Assembly: GCA_016234555.1 (NCBI GenBank)
Contig: JACRBJ010000027.1
Location: 1 to 64,000 of the forward strand
Reading direction: 5' to 3'
Origin: Chloroflexota bacterium
GTDB lineage: Bacteria; Chloroflexota; Anaerolineae; Anaerolineales; Villigracilaceae
Length of the DNA: 64,000 nt
Part shown: positions 5,863 through 56,596 of the stretch, in pieces
Numbering within the stretch: the first letter of the stretch is position 1
Layout: each line of letters starts with the position of its first letter
The notes under the pieces: model-generated
Databases searched by the model: none
What the model saw: only the letters and a program-made list of their open reading frames with translations
Told to the model about the DNA's origin: nothing
Position numbers and translations under genes: made by a program

Positions 5863-5961
5863 TCATGGCGGGATGCCCCGACAGGGTAAACCTGTCAAAA
5901 CTGTGTCAATTTTCCCCTTTGATTGACGCTGATTCCCTATTATGTTAATATTCGTTCCATC

Positions 5962-7539
5962 ATGGTCAACGCCCACACTTCCCGCGAAAACGAACTCAAC
6001 ATTCTCATCCGCGCCAAATACCCGATCCTGTACATCGTTTCGTGGGAGGAACGCCGCATCGAGCAGACCCTGCGTCAGGTGGCGGGACAGTTGCGGAAGA
6101 AGCTCTACGGCTGGAGCATCACCGACGGCATCCACCCGCTGGACGGCTACGACGGCGCAGTCCCAGACTCGTCGTCCTGCTCTCCGCTTCGGGCGCTGGA
6201 CATCATCTCCGCCTCGCAGGAATCCGCCATCTTCGTCCTGAAGGATTTCCATCCCTTCATCGATGACCGTCACCCACTGACCGACCAGCCCATCATCGTC
6301 CGCCGCCTGCGCGACATCACCAACCACCTCAAGGAAAGCCGCAAGACGCTCATCATCCTCTCGCCGCTTTTATATTTCCCTACCGAACTTGAAAAAGACA
6401 TCACTGTTTTGGATTACGCCCTGCCCACAGCGGATGAAATGACCCAGTCGCTGGAGCGCGTGGTGCGTTCGGCGCGTGAGGTCAGCGGGATGCAGGTGGA
6501 GTTGAACGACGAGATGCACGAGAAGATTCTCGCCGCCGCCCAGGGGCTGACCTGCACCGAAGCCGAAAACGTCTTCGCCAAGTCGCTGGTGATGACCCGC
6601 TCGCTGGACGTGGATGTCATCATCGCCGAGAAAAAGCAGATCATCCGCCGCTCGCAGATTTTGGAATACTTCGAAGCCGACGAGAACATGGAATACGTCG
6701 GCGGGATGAACCTGCTGAAGGAGTGGCTGGCGAAGCGCTCCCTGGCTTTCAGCGAACGCGCCCGCCTGTTTGGATTGCCGGAGCCGAAGGGGCTGCTTCT
6801 GCTTGGGGTGCAGGGAGCAGGCAAGAGCTTGATCGCGAAAGCCATCGGCAGTCAGTGGCGGCTTCCGCTTCTCCGCCTCGATCTGGGACGGCTGTTCAGC
6901 GAGCTGGTCGGCTCCTCCGAGCAAAACATGCGGACGGCGCTCAGCCTCGCCGAATCCGTTTCGCCCTGCCTGTTGTGGATCGACGAACTCGAAAAAGGGC
7001 TGGCTGGCATTGCCAGTTCGCACCTCTCGGACGCTGGCACCACCGCCCGCGTCTTCGGCAGTTTTCTGACCTGGATGCAGGAAAAGACCGCGCCCGTCTT
7101 CGTCATTGCCACCGCAAACGACATCAGCATTTTGCCGCCCGAAGCCCTGCGAAAAGGTCGCTTCGACGAAATCTTTTTCATCGACCTGCCCAACCTGACC
7201 GAGCGGCGCGACATCTTCGCCATCCACATCGCCAAGCGCGGACGCGACCCGCTGGGCTTCAATCTCGACGAACTGGCGCGGATCAGCAATAGTTTTTCGG
7301 GCGCGGAAATCGAGCAGGTGGTCATCTCGGCGTTGTATGACGCCTTCGAGGCGGGGCATGACCTGACCCAAGCCGACCTCGTCAAGGCGATCAAAGCCAC
7401 CATGCCGCTGGCGCAGACGATGGAGACGCAGGTCAACAGCCTGCGCAGTTGGGCGCGGACTCATTCCCGCCCCGCGTCTGCGGTAAACGCCCCCACCCAA
7501 CTCCCGCCCGCCACCGACCTGCGGCAGATTGAGTTATAA
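5962..7539 (+). CDS. AAA+ ATPase, Ycf46-like
   Basis: MVNAHTSRENELNILIRAKYPILYIVSWEE...; Walker A LLLGVQGAGKSLIAKAI, Walker B CLLWIDELEKGL, second region of homology RKGRFDEIFFIDLPN. The ORF-track start at 5923 is a TTG; ATG 5962 preferred. Confidence 0.9.
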   Translation: MVNAHTSRENELNILIRAKYPILYIVSWEERRIEQTLRQVAGQLRKKLYGWSITDGIHPLDGYDGAVPDSSSCSPLRALDIISASQESAIFVLKDFHPFIDDRHPLTDQPIIVRRLRDITNHLKESRKTLIILSPLLYFPTELEKDITVLDYALPTADEMTQSLERVVRSAREVSGMQVELNDEMHEKILAAAQGLTCTEAENVFAKSLVMTRSLDVDVIIAEKKQIIRRSQILEYFEADENMEYVGGMNLLKEWLAKRSLAFSERARLFGLPEPKGLLLLGVQGAGKSLIAKAIGSQWRLPLLRLDLGRLFSELVGSSEQNMRTALSLAESVSPCLLWIDELEKGLAGIASSHLSDAGTTARVFGSFLTWMQEKTAPVFVIATANDISILPPEALRKGRFDEIFFIDLPNLTERRDIFAIHIAKRGRDPLGFNLDELARISNSFSGAEIEQVVISALYDAFEAGHDLTQADLVKAIKATMPLAQTMETQVNSLRSWARTHSRPASAVNAPTQLPPATDLRQIEL

Positions 7540-7550
7540 AATCATCCAAT

Positions 7551-7583
7551 TGCTCTTTCGGGGGCTAAGCCCCCGAAAGAGCA
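7551..7583. repeat. Palindromic repeat family A, copy 1
   Basis: TGCTCTTTCGGGGGCT-A-AGCCCCCGAAAGAGCA, 16-bp perfect arms, 12 nt after the stop at 7539. Confidence 0.9.
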
Positions 7584-7596
7584 GAACTATTTCTTT

Positions 7597-8610
7597 ATGA
7601 AAACAATTTATCCCTTTCATAGTTTTCTCCGCCGCAAATTGGGGATGGTGGAACAAGTCATCACCGCCGCAGGGCTGGCTGTTTTGCTCTACGGCTTGAT
7701 GTGGTTCATCCCGTCCTACCCGCCCGATTGGGGAATTGTCATCGTGGTTGCGGTGTTCTTCCTCAGCATCGGCTCGCCAGTGGCGGGCTATTTTCTCGCT
7801 GTGCTTGCCGCCGCCTATCCGCTGTATCTGGTTTCGATTTATCTCGCCGTCGTCTTTCTGGCGATTGCGGTCATCGGGCAACATGCCTTCATCCAAAACC
7901 TCGGCGGCGTCTTGATGACCCTCGCCGCACCGCTCCTGAACGCCATCTACCTCTCGTGGACAATCCCCGTGCTGGGCGGTCTGTGGTGGGGACCCGCCGG
8001 CGGCGCGTTGATGGGCGGTCTCGCGGCGTTGTGGATGGAACTCGTCGCGGGGATGGTGTATCTCGCACCCGATCTACTCAAACTGATCGGGGTCCTGCCC
8101 GTCCTAGCAGACCCCGTAGCGAAGTTTGCCTCGGCGAACTCATTGGAGACCTTCCAGATTCTCTTCCTGCCGCTTGCGCCTGATTCTTCCACCCTGCTTT
8201 ATCACACCCTGCAAGTTGCGCTTTGGGCGTTCGTCGGCTGGGCGGTTGGCATGTTCAACGAAAAGGATTTCGTCCAGATCCGCAGACCGAGGTCGAGCGT
8301 CTTCCTCGTCGGCGGCGGGATTTTGGTCTTGGGAATCCTGCAGGTGGCGTTGAATCTCTGGCTGGGATCAGCCATCAGCGCGGACGTCCAAACCGCCATC
8401 GGCTTCACGGTCTTCTTTTCCTTCATCGCCGCCGTCCTGCTGGAAGTCGGACAATACTTCATCGAACATCCCCTGCCCGCCCCGGTGCAGCGGTCCGCGC
8501 CAATTCAGCTCGACGTGGACAATACCCCCGCCGCCATGTCTGTTCCGACCCTGCCCGATGCGCCCGCAGACGACAAACCTGACGACCTCATCATGCTGGA
8601 ATTGGATTAA
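7597..8610 (+). CDS. Multi-pass membrane protein of unknown function
   Basis: 337-aa ORF with many hydrophobic segments and an acidic soluble tail; spaced between the Ycf46-like and Ig-like genes. Confidence 0.75.
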   Translation: MKTIYPFHSFLRRKLGMVEQVITAAGLAVLLYGLMWFIPSYPPDWGIVIVVAVFFLSIGSPVAGYFLAVLAAAYPLYLVSIYLAVVFLAIAVIGQHAFIQNLGGVLMTLAAPLLNAIYLSWTIPVLGGLWWGPAGGALMGGLAALWMELVAGMVYLAPDLLKLIGVLPVLADPVAKFASANSLETFQILFLPLAPDSSTLLYHTLQVALWAFVGWAVGMFNEKDFVQIRRPRSSVFLVGGGILVLGILQVALNLWLGSAISADVQTAIGFTVFFSFIAAVLLEVGQYFIEHPLPAPVQRSAPIQLDVDNTPAAMSVPTLPDAPADDKPDDLIMLELD

Positions 8611-13861: not shown

Positions 13862-15153
13862 ACACTTCTATCTATCTCCACATCCCCTTCTGCAAACACC
13901 GCTGCGCCTACTGCGACTTCAACACGTACGCAGGTCAGGAAGATTCGATTCCCGCCTATGTGGATGCGCTTATCAAAGAGATCGAATTTGTTGGGCGACA
14001 GCGAGACAGCGATTCAGAGAGTCAACAAGGCAACGATTCGACTACTCGACTATATGACTATTCGACTATTCATACGATTTTCTTTGGCGGCGGGACTCCT
14101 TCCCTGCTGACCGCGCCCCAGTTTGATTCCATTCTCCGAGCCTTAACCTCCGCCTTTGCCTTGACCGCTGACGCGGAGATCAGCATCGAAGCCAACCCCG
14201 GCACGCTCAACCTCCAAAAGTTGGAAGACCTTCGCAAAACTGGCATCAACCGCATCAGCCTCGGCGTGCAGTCTGCCAACACTGAAGAGTTGCGGATGCT
14301 TGAACGTATCCACGATTTTTTCACGGTCATCCAGTCTGTTACCGAGGCCAGAAAAGCGGGCTTCGATAACCTCAACCTCGACCTGATTTACGGTTTGCCC
14401 GAACAATCACTCGCCTCATGGAAAACCACTCTCTCTCGGATCATCGACCTTCACCCTGAACACATCTCCGCCTATGCCCTAACCCTCGAACATGGCACGC
14501 CCTTTGGGCGTTGGTCAACCAAAGGTCTGCTCCCCATCCCCGACCCCGACCTCGCCGCCGAGATGTATGAGTACGCGGAGGAGTTTCTAGAAGCAAATGG
14601 GTATGCGCATTATGAAATTTCGAACTGGGCAAGAGATGTCGAGGAAGGTCGAAAGTCGAAAGTCGAAAGTCCGACCTTTGACCTTCGACTTTCGACTCCT
14701 TCGTTTACCTGCCGCCACAACCTTCAATACTGGCATTCCCTCCCCTACCTTGCCTTCGGTGCGGGTGCACACGGATATGTGGACGGCTACCGTTATTCAA
14801 ACGTTCTGCGTATCAAAACTTATATTGACCGCCTTACCAATTCCCAATCTACCAATTTACCATTCCCCCTTTCTCCTGCAACTGTCAACCATCACAAGCA
14901 AACCAGACAGGATGATATTTCGGATTACATGATCAACAACCTGAGATTGACACAGGCTGGGGTTGCTGAATCAGATTTCAGGGAGAGGTTTGGGGTTGGG
15001 CTTTTGGATGTCTATCAAAAGGAAATCGAGGAGTTAATCCACCTGGGGTTGCTGGAATCAAAAACCTCCGAGGTCTTAAAGACCTCGGAGGTTTACAGGC
15101 TCACCAAACGCGGCAGGCTGCTGGGAAATCAAGTATTTGTAAAATTTGTTTAA
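13858..15153 (+). CDS. hemW: HemW-like radical SAM protein (heme chaperone / oxygen-independent CPO-like)
   Basis: MNTSIYLHIPFCKHRCAYCDFNTYAG (CxxxCxxC), TIFFGGGTPSLL, GVQSANTEELRMLERIHD, NLDLIYGLPEQSLASW. Confidence 0.95.
   Translation: MNTSIYLHIPFCKHRCAYCDFNTYAGQEDSIPAYVDALIKEIEFVGRQRDSDSESQQGNDSTTRLYDYSTIHTIFFGGGTPSLLTAPQFDSILRALTSAFALTADAEISIEANPGTLNLQKLEDLRKTGINRISLGVQSANTEELRMLERIHDFFTVIQSVTEARKAGFDNLNLDLIYGLPEQSLASWKTTLSRIIDLHPEHISAYALTLEHGTPFGRWSTKGLLPIPDPDLAAEMYEYAEEFLEANGYAHYEISNWARDVEEGRKSKVESPTFDLRLSTPSFTCRHNLQYWHSLPYLAFGAGAHGYVDGYRYSNVLRIKTYIDRLTNSQSTNLPFPLSPATVNHHKQTRQDDISDYMINNLRLTQAGVAESDFRERFGVGLLDVYQKEIEELIHLGLLESKTSEVLKTSEVYRLTKRGRLLGNQVFVKFV
13995..14074. repeat. Ten near-tandem octamers inside hemW
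   Basis: GCGACAGC GAGACAGC GATTCAGA GAGTCAAC AAGGCAAC GATTCGAC TACTCGAC TATATGAC TATTCGAC TATTCATA. Confidence 0.7.
14648..14699. repeat. Heptamer repeat with inverted half inside hemW
   Basis: GTCGAAA x3 + GTC, then CGACCTT TGACCTT CGACTTT CGACTCC. Confidence 0.85.
14834..14865. repeat. Octamer near-tandem repeat inside hemW
   Basis: TTACCAAT TCCCAATC TACCAATT TACCATTC. Confidence 0.6.
15062..15094. repeat. Perfect 15-bp-arm palindrome inside hemW, encodes KTSEVLKTSEVY
   Basis: AAACCTCCGAGGTCT-TAA-AGACCTCGGAGGTTT. Confidence 0.95.
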
Positions 15154-20232: not shown

Positions 20233-20263
20233 GCTCAAGCGGGGGCTAAGCCCCCGCTTGAGC
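20233..20263. repeat. Palindromic repeat family A, copy 2
   Basis: GCTCAAGCGGGGGCT-A-AGCCCCCGCTTGAGC, 15-bp perfect arms. Confidence 0.9.
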
Positions 20264-20268
20264 GAATT

Positions 20269-21921
20269 TCATTGGGTTTTCGCCAACTCCTCGCGGGCAA
20301 ACGCCAGCGCCTGATCGAGGGTTTCGATTTTTCCCGCCGCCTGATTCTCGCGGATGGACTCCAGCAACTGACCAACGGCTGGACCAGGCTTGATACCAAG
20401 TTCCCTCATCAGGATGTTGCCATCCAGCAGTCGCGGCGGGGAGACGACTTCTTCGGGTCTTTCAAAATAATTCTCCAACAGGATACGCGCGATGTCGAGA
20501 TGGACCGTCCAGCTTTCGACGGTCAGGGCGTGGGCGCGGGTGGCGCGGACGTCTGCAAGGGCTAGCAGGACGAGGTCGATGCCAGCCTGTCCGCTGTCGC
20601 GGAAAAAGCGATAGATGGCTTTACGCGAGGGAGTCTGCTTATCCCTTTCGAGGCGGTCGGCGAAAGCGTGGATCCGCATGTGGTTTTTGACGATCGTCCG
20701 CGCACGTTCCACTTCGTCGTTGCTGACGTTGAAGGAGCGCAGCCTTTTCGCAGCGACCTCCGCGCCTCTTTCTTCGTGGTCGAAAAAGCGGATACGCCCC
20801 GATTCCTCCACCGTTTTGGTTTCAGGCTTGCAGACGTCGTGATACAAGGCGGCGAAGAAAAACAAGGAACGCAACGAACGGTCAGAGTTGAGCGGCTCGG
20901 CAAAGTGTTTTGCGATCTGCTCGCGGTAACGTCCCAGCCGCAAGCCAAGCAGGCCCGTGAACATGTCGTTCGTCTTCTCGGCGTCGTAACCAACTTTCAG
21001 CGCGGAGATGGTCTGGTCGAGATAATCCAACACGGACAAAGTATGCGTCCAGACATCAAACATGTGCGGTTCGGACTGTGCCACACCCTTCATGGCGGAG
21101 AGTTCGGGCATGAGATACGTGAAGACTCCGAGCATTTCCAGCGCACGCATACAGGCATCCGGCTTGGGTCCGCTGAGCATTTTGAAAATCTCGTCGCGCA
21201 GGCGTTCGGGCGAGATGCGACCCAGTTCACTCGCGGATTGTTTCATCAACTCACGAGTGTTCTTTTCGATGTGGAAGTCGAGAGCCGCAGCCAGTCGCAC
21301 GGCACGCAAAATCCGCACGGGGTCGTCGAACAGGGATGTAGGCAAACAGGCACGGATGATTTTTGCACGCAAGTCCTTGCCGCCCTCAGTTGGATCAATG
21401 ATGGCGCCATCGCGCAGATTGTAGGCAATGGCGTTGATCGTGAAATCGCGTCCGCGCAAATCCGCCGTTAAATTCTCGCCACGATAAACCGCAAAATCAA
21501 GATAGGCGCGCGAGCCGTCTTCATTCGTGACAATCACCCGTCCCGTGTCGCGTTCATCATCTAAAGGGAGGAAGTCCGCGCCAAGGGCGTTGGCAACTTT
21601 TCGGGCAAGGGGTATGCCGTTCGCAGGCAGGGCGAAATCAAAATCAGGAGAAGGGCGGGAAAGTAAAAGGTCGCGCACCGCTCCGCCGACAAGATAAATC
21701 TCCTGATCGGGAGGCAGAACGTCCATGACTTTTTTTACCAACGGGGGAAGCGGAAACATGAAGATGATCTCTGGTCTTTCCTTGTGACGGCTTTGCTGGG
21801 AGGCATGCAGGGCTTGTTCGGGCGTATCTCCCTGCGCGATGACTTTTCCACGCAGGCGAGCCACCCAGCGTCCCACATAAGGCGAATGAGGATTCGATAA
21901 CCCGTCAGTCATTCTCCCCAC
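20269..21921 (-). CDS. CCA tRNA nucleotidyltransferase / poly(A) polymerase family with HD domain and DUF5678-like N-terminus
   Basis: YLVGGAVRDLLLSRPSPDFDFALP; RDFTINAIAYNL; LFFFAALYHDVCKPET; N-terminal YVGRWVARLRGKVIAQGDTPEQALHAS. Confidence 0.9.
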   Translation of the reverse strand: MGRMTDGLSNPHSPYVGRWVARLRGKVIAQGDTPEQALHASQQSRHKERPEIIFMFPLPPLVKKVMDVLPPDQEIYLVGGAVRDLLLSRPSPDFDFALPANGIPLARKVANALGADFLPLDDERDTGRVIVTNEDGSRAYLDFAVYRGENLTADLRGRDFTINAIAYNLRDGAIIDPTEGGKDLRAKIIRACLPTSLFDDPVRILRAVRLAAALDFHIEKNTRELMKQSASELGRISPERLRDEIFKMLSGPKPDACMRALEMLGVFTYLMPELSAMKGVAQSEPHMFDVWTHTLSVLDYLDQTISALKVGYDAEKTNDMFTGLLGLRLGRYREQIAKHFAEPLNSDRSLRSLFFFAALYHDVCKPETKTVEESGRIRFFDHEERGAEVAAKRLRSFNVSNDEVERARTIVKNHMRIHAFADRLERDKQTPSRKAIYRFFRDSGQAGIDLVLLALADVRATRAHALTVESWTVHLDIARILLENYFERPEEVVSPPRLLDGNILMRELGIKPGPAVGQLLESIRENQAAGKIETLDQALAFAREELAKTQ

Positions 21922-29622: not shown

Positions 29623-30333
29623 ATGGAAAACCTGGCTCGCGAGGCTCTCTCTCTTTTCAACGTCCACCTGACAGGGAGACATATCCCTGCCCTTGCCGCA
29701 TACGAGCGCGAGCTTCTGGAGTGGAATCAGAAATTCAACCTGACCGCCATTCGGGACGTGGAGTCGATCCGCACCAAGCATTTTTTGGATTCGTTTTCCT
29801 GCGTGCAGGCGTGGAAAGCCAATCCGCCGCTGCGGCTCGTGGACGTGGGGACTGGTGCGGGGTTCCCGGGCATTCCCCTCAAAATCATCTATCCCGCCAT
29901 GCAGTTGACGCTGGTCGAATCTGTCGGCAAGAAAGCCAAATTCTGTCAGCACATTGTGGATATGCTGGGGCTGGAACACGTGACTGTGATTCATTCCCGC
30001 GCCGAAGACCTCGGTCAAAAGGCGGGACACCGCGAAGCGTATGATTGGGCTGTGGCACGGGCGGTGGCAAACCTCAACGTGTTGAGCGAGTACCTGCTTC
30101 CACTGGTCAAGGTGGGTGGGACGGTGCTAGCTCAAAAAGGCGAAAGCGGACCCGCCGAAGCGCAGTCCGCTGAGAAGGCGATGAAGCTATTGGGAGGCAA
30201 ACTGCGGAAGTTGATTCCCGTCAACCTGCCCGGCGTCGCCGACGACCGTTACCTCGTGCTGGTGGACAAAGTCGCCGCCACGCCGCCGAAGTATCCGCGC
30301 GCCGCGGGGATGGCGACGAAGATGCCTTTGTAG
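29623..30333 (+). CDS. rsmG: 16S rRNA (guanine-N7)-methyltransferase RsmG
   Basis: LLEWNQKFNLTAIRDVESIRTKHFLDSF; LVDVGTGAGFPGIPLKI; AVARAVANLNVLSEYLLPLVKVGG. Confidence 0.95.
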   Translation: MENLAREALSLFNVHLTGRHIPALAAYERELLEWNQKFNLTAIRDVESIRTKHFLDSFSCVQAWKANPPLRLVDVGTGAGFPGIPLKIIYPAMQLTLVESVGKKAKFCQHIVDMLGLEHVTVIHSRAEDLGQKAGHREAYDWAVARAVANLNVLSEYLLPLVKVGGTVLAQKGESGPAEAQSAEKAMKLLGGKLRKLIPVNLPGVADDRYLVLVDKVAATPPKYPRAAGMATKMPL

Positions 30334-30364
30334 GGGCGGATCGCGATCCGCCCCTACAAAGGCA
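30323..30364. repeat. Perfect 42-bp palindrome spanning the rsmG stop codon
   Basis: TGCCTTTGTAGGGGCGGATCG/CGATCCGCCCCTACAAAGGCA, 21-bp arms, no loop. Confidence 0.95.
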
Positions 30365-30756: not shown

Positions 30757-30806
30757 GTAGTAACGACTTTAGTCGTTCGAGTAAGCGCGACTAAAGTCGC
30801 AACTAC
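30757..30806. repeat. Palindromic element GTAGT..CGACTTTAGTCG...CGACTAAAGTCG..ACTAC
   Basis: GTAGTAACGACTTTAGTCGTTCGAGTAAGCGCGACTAAAGTCGCAACTAC. Confidence 0.85.
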
Positions 30807-33021: not shown

Positions 33022-35313
33022 ATGACAACAGCAACCCTTCCCTCGAACCCCCCGTTTTTGAAGAGGAACCTCTTCCTCAGCGTGACGGTTTCCACCGTTC
33101 TCGTCATCCTCATCATGGCGTTTTCGCTTGGACTTCATCTTTATAACATCGAGTCCATCGGCGACGCGAACGCCTATTACACGGCGGCGGTCAAATCGAT
33201 GCTGCAATCGTGGAGCAACTTCTTCTTCGTGGCGGCGGAGCCTGGCGGCTCCGTCACGGTGGACAAGCCTCCGCTGGGCTTGTGGATCGAAGCGGTCTTC
33301 GCCTACTTCCTCGGTGTGAGCGGATTCAGCACGTCGCTGCCCAACATCCTCGCGGGCGTGTTCGGGATTCCCCTGCTGTACGCGATGGTCAAAAAATACA
33401 TGGGCAAACTCGCGGGCTTGGTCGCAGCTTTCATCATGGCGATCACGCCAGTCTTTGTCGCCACCAACCGCAACAACACGATGGACGGTTTGCTGGTCTT
33501 CTTTTTGCTCCTCGCTGCGTGGGCGTTCATCCAAGCCACCGAAAGGAAAAGCCTGCTCTGGCTTCTGGTCGGCGCGTTCATCGTCGGGCTTGGTTTCAAC
33601 GTCAAAATGATGCAAGCCTTTTTGCCGCTGCCCGCTTTTTACGCGCTGTATTTTTTCGGCTCGCAGGAAGGCTGGCTGCAAAAGGTTTTCAACCTCGGCA
33701 TCGCCACCGCCCTGCTGATTGGCGTTTCGCTCTCGTGGGCTGTCGTTGTGGATTTGGTCCCCGCCGACTCGCGCCCGTACATCGGCTCCAGCGACGACAA
33801 CTCTGTGATGGGATTGATCTTTGGTCACAACGGGATTTCGCGGCTGGGGAATCTGCGCGGCGGCGGAGGTGGACAGACTCCGCCCAAGGCTGGTTCCAAC
33901 CCTCAGCAGGGGACTCGTCCCGGCGGCGCGCCGCAAGAGGCATTGGACGCCTGTGCCAATTTGACAGAGGGAACATCCTGCTCGTTCACACAGGCAAACG
34001 GCAATACCATCAACGGTTCTTGCATCACACCTCCCAATTTGAATGCGCTGGCTTGCGCCCCTCAGGGGATGAATCAGCCCAATGGACAGAATCAACTTCT
34101 AGGGCGGCAAACTGCTCCGCAACAGGCGGTGGACGCCTGTGCCGAGTCAACTCAGGGAGCGGCTTGTTCATTCAATCTGCAAAACGGGAACACGATTAAT
34201 GGCTCGTGCATTATTCCGCCCAACTCCACAGACTTGACTTGCGCTCCGCAGGGAATGATTCCCCAAGGTCAGCAAGGGCAGGGGCAGCCTCCGAATGGAC
34301 AGGGCGGAACTCCATTCAGTCAGGAGACTGGCACGCCAGGAGTCTTCCGTTTCTTCACCCAGCCGTTGTCCAAGCAGATGTCGTGGCTGCTGCCGTTTGC
34401 CTTGATTGGCGTTTTGATTGCGCTCTTCGCTTCGCGGGTTCAATTGCCAGTCGAGTCGGGCACGCACAAGGCGTTGATTTTGTGGGGCGGTTGGCTGTTG
34501 ACTTGCGTGGTGTTCTTCAGCATGGTCTCTGGAATATTCCACTCGTATTACGCCATCATGCTGGCTCCCCCGCTGGGCGCGATGGTCGGCATCGGCTTTG
34601 CTCAACTCTGGTCGTGGGGCGCGGATAAAAAATGGGCGGGCGCGGCGCTGGCAATCTCGGCGGCAGTGACGATTGGCTTCCAATATTTTGCTTCGGCGCA
34701 GTACAACGAGTTCTCGTGGTGGATGCTCGTCAGCACGGCACTGCTTGGCTTGGGAATCGCGCTGATGTTTATCAAGCAAAGACTTGCTTATCTTACGGTG
34801 CTGGCGGCGATGTGCATCATCCCGTTTTACTGGACTGTGATGACGGTTGCGTCCAGCGCGAACCAAAACCTGCCCACCGCATACTCTGGCGGCTACCAGC
34901 AGGTTGGACCAGACGGGATCAATCGTCCACGACAGCCTGGCGGGCAGGGACGGGGCATGGATGAAGATATGCTAACCTTCCTCGAAGAGAATACAAAGGA
35001 TGTTGAATACCTGCTGGCAGTCCCGTCCGCGCAGAACGGCTCGACGCTGGTTCTGCAAACAGGTCGCCCTGTACTGTTTATGGGCGGGTTTAGCGGCGGC
35101 GATCAAGTGGTCACGGCGGAGGATTTGTCCGCGATGGTGGCAAACGGTGAACTGCGCTACGTCCTCTACGGCGGTGATCGCGGCGGCAAGCAGGATATTT
35201 CCAACTGGCTGCAAACCTCCTGCTCGCCTGTAACTCAGTTCAGTCAGGTCACAGGTCCAGCGGGGCGGCAGGGCGAGGGAAATATGGGAATGACTTTGTT
35301 CGAATGCAAATAG
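33022..35313 (+). CDS. GT39 (ArnT/PMT-like) membrane glycosyltransferase with two internal Cys-rich modules
   Basis: GDANAYYTAAVKSMLQSW...SVTVDKPPLGLWIEA...TNRNNTMDGLLVFFLLLAAW; multiple TM; modules PQEALDACANLTEGTSCSF... and PQQAVDACAESTQGAACSF... Confidence 0.88.
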   Translation: MTTATLPSNPPFLKRNLFLSVTVSTVLVILIMAFSLGLHLYNIESIGDANAYYTAAVKSMLQSWSNFFFVAAEPGGSVTVDKPPLGLWIEAVFAYFLGVSGFSTSLPNILAGVFGIPLLYAMVKKYMGKLAGLVAAFIMAITPVFVATNRNNTMDGLLVFFLLLAAWAFIQATERKSLLWLLVGAFIVGLGFNVKMMQAFLPLPAFYALYFFGSQEGWLQKVFNLGIATALLIGVSLSWAVVVDLVPADSRPYIGSSDDNSVMGLIFGHNGISRLGNLRGGGGGQTPPKAGSNPQQGTRPGGAPQEALDACANLTEGTSCSFTQANGNTINGSCITPPNLNALACAPQGMNQPNGQNQLLGRQTAPQQAVDACAESTQGAACSFNLQNGNTINGSCIIPPNSTDLTCAPQGMIPQGQQGQGQPPNGQGGTPFSQETGTPGVFRFFTQPLSKQMSWLLPFALIGVLIALFASRVQLPVESGTHKALILWGGWLLTCVVFFSMVSGIFHSYYAIMLAPPLGAMVGIGFAQLWSWGADKKWAGAALAISAAVTIGFQYFASAQYNEFSWWMLVSTALLGLGIALMFIKQRLAYLTVLAAMCIIPFYWTVMTVASSANQNLPTAYSGGYQQVGPDGINRPRQPGGQGRGMDEDMLTFLEENTKDVEYLLAVPSAQNGSTLVLQTGRPVLFMGGFSGGDQVVTAEDLSAMVANGELRYVLYGGDRGGKQDISNWLQTSCSPVTQFSQVTGPAGRQGEGNMGMTLFECK

Positions 35314-35320
35314 GGTATTT

Positions 35321-35351
35321 GCTCAGTCGAGGGCTAAGCCCTCGACTGAGC
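35321..35351. repeat. Palindromic repeat family A, copy 3
   Basis: GCTCAGTCGAGGGCT-A-AGCCCTCGACTGAGC, 15-bp perfect arms, 8 nt after a stop codon. Confidence 0.9.
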
Positions 35352-35482: not shown

Positions 35483-37108
35483 ATGAAAACCTTGTTACCG
35501 TTTGTTTTGATCGCGTTGCTTCTTTCGGCATGTGGGATGCCCGTTCCGCCGCCGTCGGGTGGAACAACTCAGGGAGCGCAACCAGCCCAGAGCGCGACGT
35601 CCAAACCAGCTACTGCGGTGGCGTCGGCTCCAGCGTCGTCCCAGCCTGACAGCGCGGAATCAACCTCCCTTTCTTATCCCATCGTGGATACTGCACAGGC
35701 GACTTGCTATGACAACAACAATGTTATCGCTTGCCCCGAAACCGGTTCCGCCTTTGCAGGTCAGGATGGAAGTTATCAGGGACTCGCGCCCTCGTACCGC
35801 GACAATGGCGATGGGACGGTCAGTGACCTCGTGACGGGGTCGATGTGGACGCAGTCGCCCGATTTGAACGGTGACGGGACGATCAACGTCCAGGATAAAC
35901 AGACTTTCAGCGGCGCGCAAACTTATGCAGACACGCTGATCTTTTCGGGCTACGACGACTGGCGCGTGCCGACCATCAAGGAACTGTACTCGCTGATGAA
36001 TTTCAACGGCTACACTGGGATGGGCGATTTTAGCTCCGTGCCTGCGGATGCCGTGCCTTACCTCGACACGAATTACTTTGACTTTGGCTACGGCGATACT
36101 TCGGCTGGCGAGCGTTACATCGACGCGCAGTTTGCCACCACCACCAAATACGTCAGCACGACGATGAACGACAACAAGACCATGTTCGGTGTGAACTTTG
36201 CCGATGGGCGCATCAAGGGCTACGGGCTGGACGACCACGGCAAGGGAGAAAAGACTTTCTACGTTTTGTTCGTGCGCGGCGCATCGAATTATGGCGTGAA
36301 CAATTTTGTGGATAACGGCAACGGGACAATTACCGACAACGCCACGGGCTTGACCTGGATGCAGGAAGACAGCGGTGCGTTGATTTCGGGAACCATCGTC
36401 AGCGGCGGATTGAACTGGCAGGAAGCCCTCAACTGGTGCGAGTCGCTCGATTACGCGGGCGCGACCGATTGGCGTCTGCCCGACATCAAGGAGTTGCACA
36501 GCATCGTGGATTACACCCGCTCGCCCGATACCACCAACTCCGCCGCGATTGACCCGCTCTTCGAATCCACCTACCTGGCGAATGGCATCAACAATAACGG
36601 TTATCCCAACTACGGTCATTATTGGAGCAGCACCACCCACCTCGACGGCATGAACGCCGAAGCCCGCGCGGCATACATCGCCTTCGGCGAAGCGCAGGGT
36701 TTGATGAATGGCACGATGATGGATGTTCACGGGGCGGGGGCACAGCGCAGTGACATGAAGAGCGGCGACCCGTCGCAACTGCCTGTCGGGCAGGGTCCAC
36801 AGGGCGATGTGCAAAGCATCTACAACCTTGCACGCTGCGTGCGTGGTGGGACGACTGTAAACCTCTCAGGCTACACGGGCGCTGCCACATCCAGCAGACA
36901 GGAACAGCCTTTACAGAATGGTCAACCAGCACAGGGAAGTCAACCTCAAGGCGGTCAGCCGCCACAGGAAGCGATTGACACTTGTTCGGGTTTGACTCAG
37001 GGAACGGCTTGTTCGATCAACACACCGAATGGCGTGGTCAGCGGAACGTGTGGTGCGCCACCCAATGTAAGTCAACTGGCTTGTATCCCCGCAGGCGGAA
37101 CGCCTTAA
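35483..37108 (+). CDS. DUF1566-type lipoprotein with C-terminal Cys-rich module
   Basis: Lipobox MKTLLPFVLIALLLSACG; DNGDGTVSDLVTGSMW and DNGNGTITDNATGLTWMQ; WRLPDIKELHSIVDY; C-terminal PQEAIDTCSGLTQGTACSINTPNGVVSGTCGAPPNVSQLACIPAG. Confidence 0.88.
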   Translation: MKTLLPFVLIALLLSACGMPVPPPSGGTTQGAQPAQSATSKPATAVASAPASSQPDSAESTSLSYPIVDTAQATCYDNNNVIACPETGSAFAGQDGSYQGLAPSYRDNGDGTVSDLVTGSMWTQSPDLNGDGTINVQDKQTFSGAQTYADTLIFSGYDDWRVPTIKELYSLMNFNGYTGMGDFSSVPADAVPYLDTNYFDFGYGDTSAGERYIDAQFATTTKYVSTTMNDNKTMFGVNFADGRIKGYGLDDHGKGEKTFYVLFVRGASNYGVNNFVDNGNGTITDNATGLTWMQEDSGALISGTIVSGGLNWQEALNWCESLDYAGATDWRLPDIKELHSIVDYTRSPDTTNSAAIDPLFESTYLANGINNNGYPNYGHYWSSTTHLDGMNAEARAAYIAFGEAQGLMNGTMMDVHGAGAQRSDMKSGDPSQLPVGQGPQGDVQSIYNLARCVRGGTTVNLSGYTGAATSSRQEQPLQNGQPAQGSQPQGGQPPQEAIDTCSGLTQGTACSINTPNGVVSGTCGAPPNVSQLACIPAGGTP

Positions 37109-37119
37109 AGATAATCTAC

Positions 37120-37148
37120 GCTCTGGAGGGGCTAAGCCCCTCCAGAGC
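37120..37148. repeat. Palindromic repeat family A, copy 4
   Basis: GCTCTGGAGGGGCT-A-AGCCCCTCCAGAGC, 14-bp perfect arms, 12 nt after a stop codon. Confidence 0.9.
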
Positions 37149-41930: not shown

Positions 41931-41959
41931 GTGACAGTCAATTTGAAATTGACTGTCAC
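41931..41959. terminator. Perfect hairpin after miaB
   Basis: GTGACAGTCAATTT-G-AAATTGACTGTCAC, 14-bp arms. Confidence 0.75.
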
Positions 41960-47836: not shown

Positions 47837-49240
47837 ATGATAAACTTGCCGCCAGTACACAAACTGGAACGCGCAATGAAACAATCCCTGCAAACCGCAT
47901 TCAAAACCTGGCTCGGACTCACCCTGCTGGTCATCGCCAGCCTGGTCGTGATTTATCTCCGCAACGGTATGACGGGACTGGAGCTTTTCATCCAGAGCTG
48001 GCCCCTGTCCAACCTGGCTGTGACGTTGGCTTCCACCGCCTTCGTCTGGGTGTTGACGGGCGTTCTGCTTTCCCTGCTTGCAAATCAAAAAATCCACAAG
48101 GGGAATCTCTGGCTTACGGCGGGATTCTTCCTCGTCATGTTCATCTATCTCGGCATCCTGCGCGAGCGCTTCCGCTACGGCGACTATCACTACTACCTCG
48201 ACGCCGCCGCCGCCCTTGCCAAGGGACAACCCCTGCCCGACAGTTATCTCTACCTGCCGCTTTGGGCGTCTCTGCTCCAGTTCCTCGTCCCGCTTGGTGA
48301 CCAGGGCTTCATGATCATCCTGTGGATTGTCAATGTCCTCGCCCTCGCTGCTTTGTACTTCCTGCTTGTTACCGTCCTCCAACGCTACGGTTTTTCAGGT
48401 CGCCTTGCGGTTGTCATCACCATCCTCTTCCTGCTCATCAACACCCCGCTCATGCGGACTTTGGGATTTATCCAGGTCAATCTGCTGACGTTGGACTTGA
48501 TTCTGCTCAGCCTCGTCATTTATCCCAAACAGGAATTCCTATCCGCGCTGGCGCTGGCGTTTGCCGTCCACGTGAAGACGTCCCCCGCCGTGCTGGTTCT
48601 CGCCTTCCTGCTGGAGTTCAACTGGCGCTGGCTGTTTTGGTTCGCGGTTAGTTTCCTCGCCATCGGACTTTTCCCCGTCGTCACAAACGGTGTTTCGCTC
48701 TACCAGCAATTCCTGACCAACACCTTCCTGCTGACCCAAATCCCCGACACGAATTTCCACGAGACCTCCTTTGACTCCTTCCTGCGTTTTCTCAATCCCT
48801 TCCTTGGGATTCAAATCGCACAGACCCGTCTCATAGCGCTTGCCGCAAAAGCCTTGCTCCTGTTTGCCTCTCTCGCGGTGATGGCGCAATCAGTCAGCAG
48901 TCAATCGTTCAACAAAGAGAACCGCCTGCTGAACGCCGTCCCGCCGCTGTTCGTGCTGATGACCCTCGCCTCCCCCATCGTCTGGGACCATCACGGGCTT
49001 TTCACCGCCCTTGCTTTTCTGCTCATGCTCAAGCGCATCCACTCCCCGTCCGCGTGGGTTTGGTTTGGCTTCGCCTACTTCCTCGAATTCGTCCTGCCCT
49101 CCTTCGACTTCTTCCCCTGGTCGTACGGTCGCCTCATCGCGCCGCTCATCGTCCTCTGGCTGATGTGGCGCACCGCGAAGAACGACGAATCGCCCTTCAT
49201 CGCGTCGGCAAATGGCTGGCTTGCAAAAATTGCCTCTTGA
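47837..49240 (+). CDS. GT87/DUF2029-like membrane mannosyltransferase
   Basis: RFRYGDYHYYLDAAAALAKGQPLPDSYLYLPLWASLLQFLVPLG; YPKQEFLSALALAFAVHVKTSPAVLVLAFLLEFNWRWL. Confidence 0.82.
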   Translation: MINLPPVHKLERAMKQSLQTAFKTWLGLTLLVIASLVVIYLRNGMTGLELFIQSWPLSNLAVTLASTAFVWVLTGVLLSLLANQKIHKGNLWLTAGFFLVMFIYLGILRERFRYGDYHYYLDAAAALAKGQPLPDSYLYLPLWASLLQFLVPLGDQGFMIILWIVNVLALAALYFLLVTVLQRYGFSGRLAVVITILFLLINTPLMRTLGFIQVNLLTLDLILLSLVIYPKQEFLSALALAFAVHVKTSPAVLVLAFLLEFNWRWLFWFAVSFLAIGLFPVVTNGVSLYQQFLTNTFLLTQIPDTNFHETSFDSFLRFLNPFLGIQIAQTRLIALAAKALLLFASLAVMAQSVSSQSFNKENRLLNAVPPLFVLMTLASPIVWDHHGLFTALAFLLMLKRIHSPSAWVWFGFAYFLEFVLPSFDFFPWSYGRLIAPLIVLWLMWRTAKNDESPFIASANGWLAKIAS

Positions 49241-49241
49241 A

Positions 49242-50999
49242 ATGAAGAAGTATCTTTCCACCGTTGTCCTTGCCACCATCCTGCTTGCGGGCTTGCTGAC
49301 CTTCAACCAATACGGCGACAGTTGGGATGACCGCTCGCTGCAAAAGTACGCCGCCAAATCCCTCAACGCCTACATCACCTTTCCGCAGCAAGGCAAAGTC
49401 AACATCGAACGAGAAGGCCTCGGCTACTACGGTCCCTCCTTCGTGATGACGGTTACCGCACTCTCCAACGCGCTCGACTTCCTCCCCCTCTCCAATCCCG
49501 ACCTGCGCCACCTGCTCTACTTCCTCACCTACTTTGCAGGTGTCGTCGCCTTTCACTCGCTTGCCAAACGCTGGCTAAGCGACCTCCCCGCCCTTGGCGC
49601 CACCGTCCTCTACGCCACCCAACCCCTGCTCTGGGGACACGCCTTCATCAACCCCAAAGACACGCCCTTTCTTTCCCTTTTTTTGATCTCCCTTGCTTTG
49701 GGATTTAATTTTTTTGACAAATTGCCCGCGGAATCTGGTCCACGCCCAAGCCGAATCCAACTACTTTTGACCGCGCTTTGGGTTGGTTCTGTTTTCTCGT
49801 TGTTTGTCTTCACCGAAAGTTTTTACAACCTCATCGCCAGCCTTGTCCAATCCGCGCATTCTGGGAACGCCAACGTCGTCTCGCTGATCGCCTCCGACAT
49901 CCTCACTGCCAATCCAGAGATTTACATCCAAAAATATTTCGTCCTCTTCCTCCGCGCCCGCGCCATCTTCTTCATCCTGTTTACCTGTCTACTTGTTTAC
50001 CTGTACCGCCCGTATTCTGCATTCTTCACTCTCCCTTCTGCATTTCTTCTCGGCTTCACCACCTCCACCCGAATCCTCGGACCCTTTGCCGGCGTCCTCG
50101 TCGCCTGCTACGCCTTGCGGACAAAAGGCAAACGCGCCATTCCATCCCTCATTGCCTACTCCCTCCTCTCCCTCATCTCCACCTATCTCACCTGGCCCTA
50201 CTTGTGGCTGAATCCTGTCGGGCATTTCATCGAAAGTTTCAAGGAAATGTCCCTCTACCCCTGGAAGGGAGTTGTCCTCTTCAACGGCACCAACTACCAA
50301 ATTACCAATTTACCAACGGCATATCTCCCTGTTCTGCTTGCCATCCAGTTGACCGAACCCGTCTGGGCGTTGTCCCTGGTTGGATGGTGGGTATCTATTC
50401 TTCGTAGGGGCGAAGCACGCTTCGCCCATTTGATGGAATCATCCCTGCTATGGTTCGTCCTCCCGTTGACCGCGTTCATCGTCCTGAAAATCGCCCTGTA
50501 CGATAACTTCCGCCAGATCCTCTTCATCCTGCCGCCGATATTTTTAATGGCTGGAGTTGCATTCGAGGCGGTAAAGCAAGTAAAATGGCAAGCCGCGTTG
50601 ATTGGGTTGTGTCTCATTCCAAACCTGCTTGGCATTGTGTCGCTGCATCCTTACGAGTATATTTATTACAACCGTTTCATCGGCGGCGTGGACGGCGCTG
50701 TGGGACGCTTCGAGCTGGATTACTGGGTCACGTCCTACCGCGAGGCGGCGGAGTATATCAACGGCGTGGCTTCGCCGAATGCCAGCATTTGGGTGGAGGG
50801 ACCCGCCAACCTGTTCACCCCGTTCACGCGCGAGGACTTGAAAATCTACTCGCCCAACGAAGCGGAGCGCGCCGAAAGTTATGAATACATCGTGGCGGCA
50901 ACCCGCTACAACTTCGACAAGACCTCCTATCCCGATGCGGAGATTGTATATAAAATCAAGCGCGGCGATGCCGTGCTGACGGTCATCAAAAAACCGTAA
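49242..50999 (+). CDS. GT39-like membrane glycosyltransferase
   Basis: FNQYGDSWDDRSLQKYAAKSL; ATVLYATQPLLWGHAFINPKDTPFLSLFLISL; TM-rich; start set at MKKYLS (TGAAATG). Confidence 0.82.
   Translation: MKKYLSTVVLATILLAGLLTFNQYGDSWDDRSLQKYAAKSLNAYITFPQQGKVNIEREGLGYYGPSFVMTVTALSNALDFLPLSNPDLRHLLYFLTYFAGVVAFHSLAKRWLSDLPALGATVLYATQPLLWGHAFINPKDTPFLSLFLISLALGFNFFDKLPAESGPRPSRIQLLLTALWVGSVFSLFVFTESFYNLIASLVQSAHSGNANVVSLIASDILTANPEIYIQKYFVLFLRARAIFFILFTCLLVYLYRPYSAFFTLPSAFLLGFTTSTRILGPFAGVLVACYALRTKGKRAIPSLIAYSLLSLISTYLTWPYLWLNPVGHFIESFKEMSLYPWKGVVLFNGTNYQITNLPTAYLPVLLAIQLTEPVWALSLVGWWVSILRRGEARFAHLMESSLLWFVLPLTAFIVLKIALYDNFRQILFILPPIFLMAGVAFEAVKQVKWQAALIGLCLIPNLLGIVSLHPYEYIYYNRFIGGVDGAVGRFELDYWVTSYREAAEYINGVASPNASIWVEGPANLFTPFTREDLKIYSPNEAERAESYEYIVAATRYNFDKTSYPDAEIVYKIKRGDAVLTVIKKP
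49978..50042. repeat. Octamer then heptamer near-tandem repeats inside the GT39 gene
   Basis: TGTTTACC TGTCTACT TGTTTACC TGTACC; TTCTGCA TTCTTCA CTCTCCC TTCTGCA. Confidence 0.65.
50408..50427. repeat. GTAGGGGCG-type palindrome inside a CDS
   Basis: GTAGGGGCGAAGC-AC-GCTTCGCCC; 9-bp arms 50408-50416/50419-50427. Confidence 0.75.
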
Positions 51000-51005
51000 A
51001 TTCCT

Positions 51006-51036
51006 GCTCCATCAGAGGCTAAGCCCCCGATGGAGC
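51006..51036. repeat. Palindromic repeat family A, copy 5 (two mismatches)
   Basis: GCTCCATCAGAGGCT-A-AGCCCCCGATGGAGC, 7 nt after the stop at 50999. Confidence 0.85.
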
Positions 51037-51051
51037 GAATACAGAGAGAAC

Positions 51052-52917
51052 ATGAACCTATTGGAAATCCTTTCACAAAAAACCTTACTGGCAGACGGCG
51101 CGATGGGAACCATGCTCCACGCGCGCGGCATGAGTTTCGCAAATTGCTTCGACGAACTCAACCTGACCAACCCCGCCGCCGTGGCGGACATTCACCGCGA
51201 ATACATCGAGGCGGGTGCGCAGTTGATCATCACCAACACCTTCGGGGCAAACCGCTTCAAGCTGGGCAAGCACGGATTGGAAAACCGTCTGGTCGAGATC
51301 AACCGCGCAGGAGTGGAACTGGCGCGGCGGGCGGTGGCGGCATCCTTCAAGGAAGGCGTGCTGGTGGCTGGTGACGTGGGTCCGCTGGGCGTGCGCATCG
51401 CCCCGTACGGACGAGTCAAACCCGAAGAGGCACGCGCAGCATTTGCCGAGCAGGTTCAAGCGCTGGCAGATGCCGGCGTGGATTTGATCGTCATCGAGAC
51501 CATGAGCGACCTGTACGAAATTCAGGAAGCCATCCACGCGGCAAAATCGATTGCAGGGGCGGATGGCCGCCCGCCCCTACCTGTCATTGCATCCGTCACC
51601 TTCACCCGCGATGACCGCACCCTCCTCGGCGACTCTCCCTCCCAAGTGGCGCAAAAAATCCACGAGGCGGGTGCAGACGTGATTGGCGTCAACTGTTCTG
51701 GCGGACCATCACAACTGCTCCGCATCCTCAAACAAATGAAACAGGCTGTGCCAGACGGAAAGTTCTGGGTCAAGCCAAACGCGGGCTGGCCCGAACAGGT
51801 GGGCGGACGCATCATGTATCCCGCCGACGCGGAGTACTTCGGCAACTACGCCATTGCCTTCCGCGAGGCGGGCGCAAACATCGTCGGCGGCTGCTGCGGA
51901 ACCACACCCCAACACATCGCCGCGATGAAAAAGGCGTTTGAAGTCACTCCCTTCCAGGCTTCGGAAGTCTTGGAGACTTCGGAAGTCTCAGACATTGAAG
52001 AGACGGACAAAGAGCAGCCCACTCAACTGGCGCAAAAACTTGCGGCGGGGAAATTCTCCATCTGCGTCGAGATGGACCCGCCGCGCGGACTCTCGACTCA
52101 CAAACTGTTGGCGGGCGCGTCCCTGCTCCACGACGCGGGCGCGGACGTTATCAACGTGGCAGATAGCCCGATGGCGCGGATGCGAATGTCCGCGTGGGCG
52201 GTTTGTGATTTGGTCCAGCGCAAAATTGGAGTCGAAACTACCCTGCACTTCCCCACCCGTGGAAGAAATCTTCTGCGCGTGCAAGGCGACCTGCTTGCCG
52301 CTCACGCCATCGGCTTGCGGAATATCTTCGTCGTCATGGGCGACCCGACTTCGATTGGCGACTATCCCGAAGCCACCGACAACTATGATCTTGTCCCGTC
52401 GGGCTTGGTCAAACTCATCAAGCAGGGATTCAACATGGGAGTGGACCACTCCGGCACGAGCATCGGCCAACCGACAAATTTCTTCGTCGGCGCGGCGCTC
52501 AGCCTCTGCCCGAAGGACATGGATAACGAAGTCAAGAACCTGCATCGCAAGGTCAAAGCCGGTGCGGACTTTTTCCTCACCCAGCCCATCTACCGTCCGA
52601 CGGATGGGCCCAACCTGATCCAAGCCTACGAAGCGAAGCACGGCAAGCTGGATAAGCCGATTCTGGCAGACATCCTGCCGCTGGTCAGCCCGAAGCACGT
52701 CAACTTTTTGCACAACGAAGTCCCCGGCGTCTTCATCCCCGACGAGGCACGGCGGCGGATCGAAGAAGCTGGCGACGCGGAGCGCGGCTCAAAGGTTGGC
52801 GTGGAACTGGCTGTCGAGTTGATCCAGCAGATCAAGGGTTGGGCGAGCGGCGTCTATTTCATGCCGCAGTTCCACCGCTACGATATGGTCGCCGACATCA
52901 TCGAAAGGGTCAAATAG
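51052..52917 (+). CDS. Bifunctional homocysteine S-methyltransferase / methylenetetrahydrofolate reductase
   Basis: LADGAMGTMLHARG; NTFGANRFKL; GGCCGTTPQHI; CVEMDPPRGLSTHKLL; TTLHFPTRGRNLLRVQGDLLAAHAIGLRNIFVVMGDP. Confidence 0.93.
   Translation: MNLLEILSQKTLLADGAMGTMLHARGMSFANCFDELNLTNPAAVADIHREYIEAGAQLIITNTFGANRFKLGKHGLENRLVEINRAGVELARRAVAASFKEGVLVAGDVGPLGVRIAPYGRVKPEEARAAFAEQVQALADAGVDLIVIETMSDLYEIQEAIHAAKSIAGADGRPPLPVIASVTFTRDDRTLLGDSPSQVAQKIHEAGADVIGVNCSGGPSQLLRILKQMKQAVPDGKFWVKPNAGWPEQVGGRIMYPADAEYFGNYAIAFREAGANIVGGCCGTTPQHIAAMKKAFEVTPFQASEVLETSEVSDIEETDKEQPTQLAQKLAAGKFSICVEMDPPRGLSTHKLLAGASLLHDAGADVINVADSPMARMRMSAWAVCDLVQRKIGVETTLHFPTRGRNLLRVQGDLLAAHAIGLRNIFVVMGDPTSIGDYPEATDNYDLVPSGLVKLIKQGFNMGVDHSGTSIGQPTNFFVGAALSLCPKDMDNEVKNLHRKVKAGADFFLTQPIYRPTDGPNLIQAYEAKHGKLDKPILADILPLVSPKHVNFLHNEVPGVFIPDEARRRIEEAGDAERGSKVGVELAVELIQQIKGWASGVYFMPQFHRYDMVADIIERVK
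51555..51578. repeat. GGGGCGG...CCGCCCC palindrome inside the methyltransferase gene
   Basis: AGGGGCGG (51555-51562) / CCGCCCCT (51571-51578), encodes AGADGRPPLP. Confidence 0.75.
51959..51988. repeat. CTTCGGAAGTCT duplicated element inside the methyltransferase/MTHFR linker
   Basis: CTTCGGAAGTCT-TGGAGA-CTTCGGAAGTCT, encodes ASEVLETSEV. Confidence 0.85.
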
Positions 52918-56567: not shown

Positions 56568-56596
56568 AAAACAGCCACCGTTGAGGTGGCTGTTTT
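56568..56596. terminator. Bidirectional hairpin terminator
   Basis: AAAACAGCCACC (56568-56579) / GGTGGCTGTTTT (56585-56596). Confidence 0.85.

What the first reader, a model, noticed from the sequence alone, without database searches (positions are those of the whole stretch)
7551..7583. Palindrome family A: five copies with conserved GGCTAAGCC core, GCTC/GAGC ends and covarying arms
Copies at 7551-7583, 20233-20263, 35321-35351, 37120-37148 and 51006-51036. All are GCTC-(variable)-GGCT-A-AGCC-(complementary variable)-GAGC. The variable arm changes on both sides (TTTCGGG, AAGCGGG, AGTCGAG, TGGAG, CATCAGA), so pairing is kept while sequence is not; the last copy has two mismatches. All lie within about 5-25 nt of a stop codon. 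Covariation plus position points to a structural element (terminator, mRNA 3'-end stabiliser, or REP/BIME-like mobile palindrome).
Basis: seen in the sequence. Interest (0 to 1): 0.75.

Follow-up and report, generated by a model that had tools for sequence, protein, structure and literature searches.

The report
Transposase-linked repeat palindromes after stop codons
Five 29-31-base DNA hairpins just after stop codons belong to a mobile repeat family spread through some Anaerolineales (Chloroflexota) genomes by a small "REP" transposase; this is a real, untagged variant of a known kind of bacterial repeat, not a set of ordinary transcription terminators.

Summary
All five palindromes exist as described, lie 5-12 nt from a stop codon, and are not chance. 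The window's genome (an Anaerolineales-type Chloroflexota MAG, 5.8 Mb) holds 28 exact-pattern copies and about 55-59 in all. Mid-stem pairs covary strongly (0 of 500 shuffles), while the apex (GGGGCTAAGCCCC) and foot (GCTC/GAGC) barely change. Copies sit in tandem spacers or convergent 3' ends, almost never between divergent genes. The family is patchy: 17 of 57 same-genus genomes, 0 of 24 from other families of the order. In four genomes a 183-aa REP-associated tyrosine transposase (RAYT) is flanked on both sides by family A palindromes. These RAYTs form one clade, just downstream of the same ABC-F gene; other RAYT clades carry other palindromes. Family A is therefore a RAYT-linked REP family, probably mobilised as folded single-stranded DNA. 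It is unusual in lacking the GTAG/CGTC tag, in occurring as single copies, and in its freely varying but paired mid-stem. The window's genome shows no cognate RAYT, so its copies look orphaned. A terminator role is unlikely (3 of 72 tandem copies have a T-tract). Any RNA role is untested.

The parts
7551..7583 (.). family A palindrome, 15 bp arms, TAA apex; 12 nt after the stop of the AAA-ATPase gene (5923-7539 +), before the gene at 7597 +
   Evidence: at this spot G079 has an unrelated 98-nt stretch
20233..20263 (.). family A palindrome, 14 bp arms; between two minus-strand genes, 5 nt after the stop of the CCA-adding-type nucleotidyltransferase gene (20269-21921 -)
   Evidence: site lacks family A in G078
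35321..35351 (.). family A palindrome, 14 bp arms (A-T pair near the apex: CGAGGG/CCCTCG); 7 nt after the stop of the mannosyltransferase-like gene (33022-35313 +)
37120..37148 (.). family A palindrome, 29-nt form with 13 bp arms; between convergent genes ending at 37108 (+) and 37156 (-)
51006..51036 (.). family A palindrome with two A-C mismatches; 6 nt after the stop of 49212-50999 (+), upstream of the homocysteine methyltransferase/MTHFR gene (51052 +)
   Evidence: orthologous copy, also imperfect, in G078

Best explanation
Family A is a REP family: short non-autonomous palindromes mobilised by a cognate RAYT (TnpA_REP-type HUH/tyrosine transposase). Shown here: dispersed copies, patchy distribution, site turnover between close relatives, palindromes on both sides of every member found of one RAYT clade, and stem covariation. 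Inferred: the displaced single strand folds into a 14-bp hairpin with a TAA triloop. The transposase reads the invariant apex and probably the GCTC/GAGC foot as sequence, and the mid-stem only as a paired helix. Mid-stem pairs can then drift only as compensated pairs. Copies survive where they do least harm, in the few nucleotides between a stop codon and the next gene. In the window's genome the family appears to have outlived its RAYT.
For: 28 exact copies in the genome with 0 in the control, about 55-59 with a covariance model. Covariation: 97.6% of cells paired, 8 pairs with changes on both sides, 51 such cells, 0/500 shuffles as high, slid controls far lower; mutual information up to 1.57 bits at mid-stem pairs over 147 copies. 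RAYT: a 183-aa protein scoring 94 bits against NCBIfam NF047646 REP_Tyr_transpos (cut-off 80), flanked by family A palindromes in G026, G078, G064 and G067. RAYT tree: family A clade supported 100/99, and every RAYT clade has its own palindrome type with the minimum number of label changes. All four RAYTs lie just 3' of the same ABC-F gene, as expected of vertically inherited RAYTs (PMC8049555). Patchiness: 17 of 57 genus members carry copies, and all four RAYT-A genomes are among them (hypergeometric 0.006). Turnover: sites 20233 and 7552 lack family A in relatives that are 81-93% identical around them, and only about 11 of about 55 copies have an orthologous copy among those fetched from G078. 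Published biochemistry of perfect-palindrome REPs: a loop base is essential, exchanging stem bases for their complements has mild effects, and a mid-stem mismatch almost abolishes cleavage (PMC8266576).
Against: No RAYT of this clade was found in the window's own genome, nor in G070 and G002, which carry tens of copies. No clean empty site with a precise insertion boundary or target preference was recovered. There is no GTAG/CGTC tag. No activity has been measured. One orthologous pair shows a compensated double change in place (L019/L277), which fits selection or templated correction at the site as well as transposition.
Confidence: 0.88

Rival explanations
1. The palindromes are intrinsic (or U-tract-less) transcription terminators.
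For: Very stable hairpins (mean RNA energy -26.9 kcal/mol) just after stop codons; 14 of 97 classifiable copies lie between convergent genes.
Against: Only 3 of 72 tandem copies have 6 or more T in 8 nt downstream. About 80% lie between co-directional genes, often in 47-60 nt spacers directly before the next start codon. Most genomes of the same genus lack the motif altogether. Terminators do not explain the RAYT association.
Confidence: 0.05
2. Copies now act as RNA elements (3'-end protection from exonucleases, or ribosome stalling close to the stop codon), and selection for the RNA hairpin keeps the arms complementary.
For: 78% of copies with a measurable distance lie within 15 nt of a stop codon (73 of 93, from the lists), the range in which E. 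coli REPs are reported to stall ribosomes (as cited in PMC12306157). Almost no copies lie in divergent spacers (4 of 97, P about 1.5e-13). L019/L277 shows an in-place compensated pair change. Copies persist in a genome without a detected RAYT of the clade.
Against: Both strand orientations are used equally (35 A vs 41 T). Other orthologous copies carry mismatches (L007, L017, L048). Position is also explained by purifying selection against insertion elsewhere. GT/TG wobble pairs are rare at mid-stem, although RNA selection should tolerate them.
Confidence: 0.25
3. Covariation is made by a mutational process: hairpin-templated (quasi-palindrome) correction copies one arm onto the other, with no selection on pairing.
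For: Mid-stem pairs 5-8 change freely yet are 94-97% Watson-Crick, with few wobble intermediates.
Against: Mismatches do persist at pairs 9-12 and in orthologous copies; the mechanism does not explain conservation of apex and foot or the RAYT link.
Confidence: 0.12

Closest known systems
GTAG-tagged REPs and their RAYTs/TnpA_REP (Stenotrophomonas, Pseudomonas, E. coli)
   Same: Short extragenic palindromes, dispersed, just 3' of ORFs and mostly between unidirectional or convergent genes; stem subfamilies with complementary changes; RAYT flanked by two copies (PMC2817692, PMC3733652).
   Different: No GT[AG]G foot (0 of 147 in the 5' flank); no REPIN/BIME pairs; longer perfect stem (14 bp) with both ends conserved and the middle hypervariable; tens rather than hundreds of copies.
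TnpA_Y1 subclass 2.6 (and class 3) with 'atypical secondary structures' (PMC6006769)
   Same: Class 2 Y-xxx-NP tyrosine motif and H-u-H motif; for 2.6, untagged hairpins flanking the gene with copies elsewhere in the genome.
   Different: Y motif here is Y[IT]H[YH]NP with a WED/WGD motif rather than YIH[QN]NP with WQ; host is Chloroflexota, not mainly Bacteroidetes. Placement in that published tree was not tested.
'Double foot' REPs of TnpA_Y1 subclass 2.4 (PMC6006769)
   Same: Symmetrical conserved feet at both ends of a long stem.
   Different: The feet are GCTC/GAGC and not GTAG/CTAC; the Y motif differs.

Membership tests
RAYT-associated REP (REPtron), general class | Short (20-40 nt) palindrome dispersed in intergenic space | tested here: met
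   29-33 nt; about 55-59 copies; 52 of 55 G000 loci placed outside predicted genes
RAYT-associated REP (REPtron), general class | RAYT/TnpA_REP gene flanked on both sides by the palindrome | tested here: met
   four RAYTs in G026, G078, G064, G067; NF047646 hit above cut-off. Not found in the window's own genome
RAYT-associated REP (REPtron), general class | Each RAYT clade has its own palindrome family | tested here: met
   10 label changes, the minimum; RAYT-A clade 100/99
RAYT-associated REP (REPtron), general class | RAYT cleaves or binds the folded single-stranded palindrome | not testable with these tools
   needs an in vitro assay
GTAG/CGTC-tagged REP superfamilies | Unpaired GTAG or CGTC tag at one end | tested here: not met
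   GT[AG]G in the 8-nt 5' flank: 0 of 147; CGTC 4, at chance level; no tag beside the RAYT-flanking copies
REPIN / BIME | Palindromes in closely spaced inverted pairs | tested here: not met
   0 of 92 copies have another family A core within 400 bp; the only clustering seen is around the RAYT in G026
Intrinsic terminator | GC hairpin followed by a T-tract at operon ends | tested here: not met
   3 of 72 tandem copies with a T-tract; most copies between co-directional genes
Rfam families | Match above gathering score | tested here: not met
   only a tRNA in the window
TnpA_Y1 subclass 2.6 | RAYT falls within that subclass of the published tree | not tested
   only motifs were compared with the published table

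The most novel reading that the evidence does not exclude
In the window's genome the family has lost its transposase and has been taken over by the host as an intercistronic RNA or DNA element, with palindromy maintained at individual sites by compensatory change.
Probability: 0.15. Interest if true: 0.6.

Novelty: new variant of a known kind. Interest (0 to 1): 0.42.

Why it matters
It gives Chloroflexota a RAYT/REP pair with a natural mutational experiment built in: within one genome about twenty different mid-stems coexist with a fixed apex and foot, which predicts what the transposase reads as sequence and what it reads only as a helix. It also shows that covarying hairpins after stop codons can be mobile-element footprints rather than functional RNA, a caution for covariation-based RNA discovery.

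Tried and rejected
The AlphaFold model of RAYT-A from three sequences was poor (mean pLDDT 39.5) and was not taken further. No PDB relative was found by sequence. RAYTs of the window's own genome were examined as candidate partners: two (L061, L062) are flanked by other palindromes (AGACCTCCGAGG and AGGTGACAGTCACC types), so they are not the cognate transposase. Strand orientation of the loop was examined as a signal and rejected. A precise target site was looked for in flank conservation: only AT-richness and a weak pyrimidine bias before the foot were seen. A literature search for the core sequence found nothing.

Full report
Observation. The five copies are present exactly as described, and the pattern has no match in 100 dinucleotide shuffles of the window. 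Distances to the nearest stop codon are 5-12 nt. The copy at 51006 has two A-C mismatches and the other four are perfect. The apex is better read as a TAA triloop closed by C-G than as a single-base loop; the RNA fold of a typical copy is 14 pairs plus 3.

Extent. In the whole genome the exact pattern has 28 copies (15 forward, 13 reverse), with none in the reversed control. A covariance model built from 20 distinct copies finds about 55-59 loci; hits are listed on both strands because the element is a palindrome, and the weakest few are doubtful. Ends vary slightly (GTTC/GAAC, GCTT/AAGC), again on both sides.

Covariation. On 33 distinct copies from this genome, 97.6% of cells form standard pairs, 8 of 14 pairs have changes on both sides, and no shuffle of 500 reached any of the five measures; sliding the partners by 1-3 columns destroys the signal. 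The innermost pair never varies and the other apex pairs hardly do, while the fifth to eighth pairs carry most of the compensated changes. Over 147 copies from several genomes the same mid-stem pairs reach up to 1.57 bits of mutual information (these copies were picked by a script that required the apex and good pairing, so it says nothing about the apex itself). These are related repeats, so the shuffles are not strict probabilities, but many different pair types at the same position argue for repeated compensated change.

Position. With a simple home-made gene caller, 79 of 97 classifiable copies in G000 and G078 lie between co-directional genes, 14 between convergent and 4 between divergent genes, against about 34 expected divergent from intergenic length in the window (P about 1.5e-13). 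Three further G000 copies fall inside predicted genes. In tandem spacers the median distance to the stop is 9 nt, against 18.6 for random placement in the same spacers. Of 93 copies with a measurable stop distance 73 lie within 15 nt (lists). Many spacers are only 47-60 nt long, little more than the element itself.

Distribution. Copies occur in 17 of 57 genomes of the genus and in none of 24 genomes from other families of the order. Named hits are mostly Anaerolineales/Chloroflexi MAGs; a few single hits in other phyla were not examined, and some are expected by chance for so loose a pattern.

The transposase. In G026 a 183-aa ORF is flanked by family A palindromes on both sides. It matches NCBIfam REP-associated tyrosine transposase above cut-off and Pfam Y1_Tnp. 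Its only close relatives in the genus, in G078, G064 and G067 (66-72% identity), are each flanked on both sides by family A palindromes with different mid-stems. All four lie directly after the same ABC-F gene, so the RAYT is inherited in place. A tree of 27 RAYTs of the genus puts these four in one clade (100/99), and each clade has its own palindrome type. The window's genome gave no hit to this RAYT. Its assembly is fragmented (101 contigs), so loss is likely but not proven.

Turnover. At site 20233 the closely related G078 has a different sequence. At 7552 G079 has an unrelated 98-nt stretch. At 51006 G078 has an orthologous, also imperfect copy, G016 has another palindrome (AGACCCTAAAGGTTT type), and G025 and G019 have only a short spacer. 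About 11 of the G000 copies have an orthologous family A copy among those fetched from G078, some decayed, one with a compensated double change (L019/L277), one probably an independent insertion (L008/L275).

Mechanism. By analogy with TnpA_REP, the element acts as folded single-stranded DNA. Published work on perfect-palindrome REPs shows an essential loop base, mild effects of exchanging stem bases for their complements, and near loss of cleavage on a mid-stem mismatch (PMC8266576). That is the conservation pattern seen here: fixed apex, paired but free mid-stem. The fixed GCTC/GAGC foot may replace the missing GTAG tag; this last step is conjecture.

Comparison with the known. 3'-end position, complementary stem variants and RAYT coupling are all described for GTAG REPs (PMC2817692, PMC3733652), so the principal features are not new. 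What differs is the absence of any tag, strictly single copies, conserved paired feet, and a hypervariable middle. Untagged hairpins are known beside TnpA_Y1 subclass 2.6 (PMC6006769); whether RAYT-A belongs there was not tested. I found no description of this sequence.

Rivals. Terminators are unlikely. A present-day RNA role (3'-end protection or ribosome stalling near the stop) is compatible with the position and cannot be excluded; it would be a secondary effect of a mobile element. Hairpin-templated correction could contribute to the covariation.

Noticed in passing
window 15062-15094 and 41931-41959: Two other perfect palindromes with triloops resemble the palindromes flanking two RAYTs of the same genome (L061: AGACCTCCGAGG type; L062: AGGTGACAGTCACC type), so the genome holds several REP families at once.
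   Followed up: partly
window 30323-30364 and 30757-30806: Further palindromes of the GTAGGGGCG and GACTTTAGTCG types; similar hairpins flank other RAYTs in the genus (L135, L133).
   Followed up: partly
window 50999-51052 and orthologous spacers in L239-L257: The same stop-codon spacer holds different palindromic repeats in different genomes and is only a few nucleotides long in others, a serial landing site.
   Followed up: partly
L059 and similar hits: A conserved protein with a Y1_Tnp-like domain in an open frame of about 530-600 codons (811 in G000) occurs in most genomes of the genus; by size it is not a RAYT and its role is unknown.
   Followed up: no
L105 5747-9306: Four family A-type palindromes cluster within 3.6 kb around the RAYT in G026, one with a variant apex (GGGGGTTCAACCCCC).
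   Followed up: partly
window 56568-56596: A terminator-like hairpin (AAAACAGCCACC...GGTGGCTGTTTT) next to tRNA-Glu.
   Followed up: no
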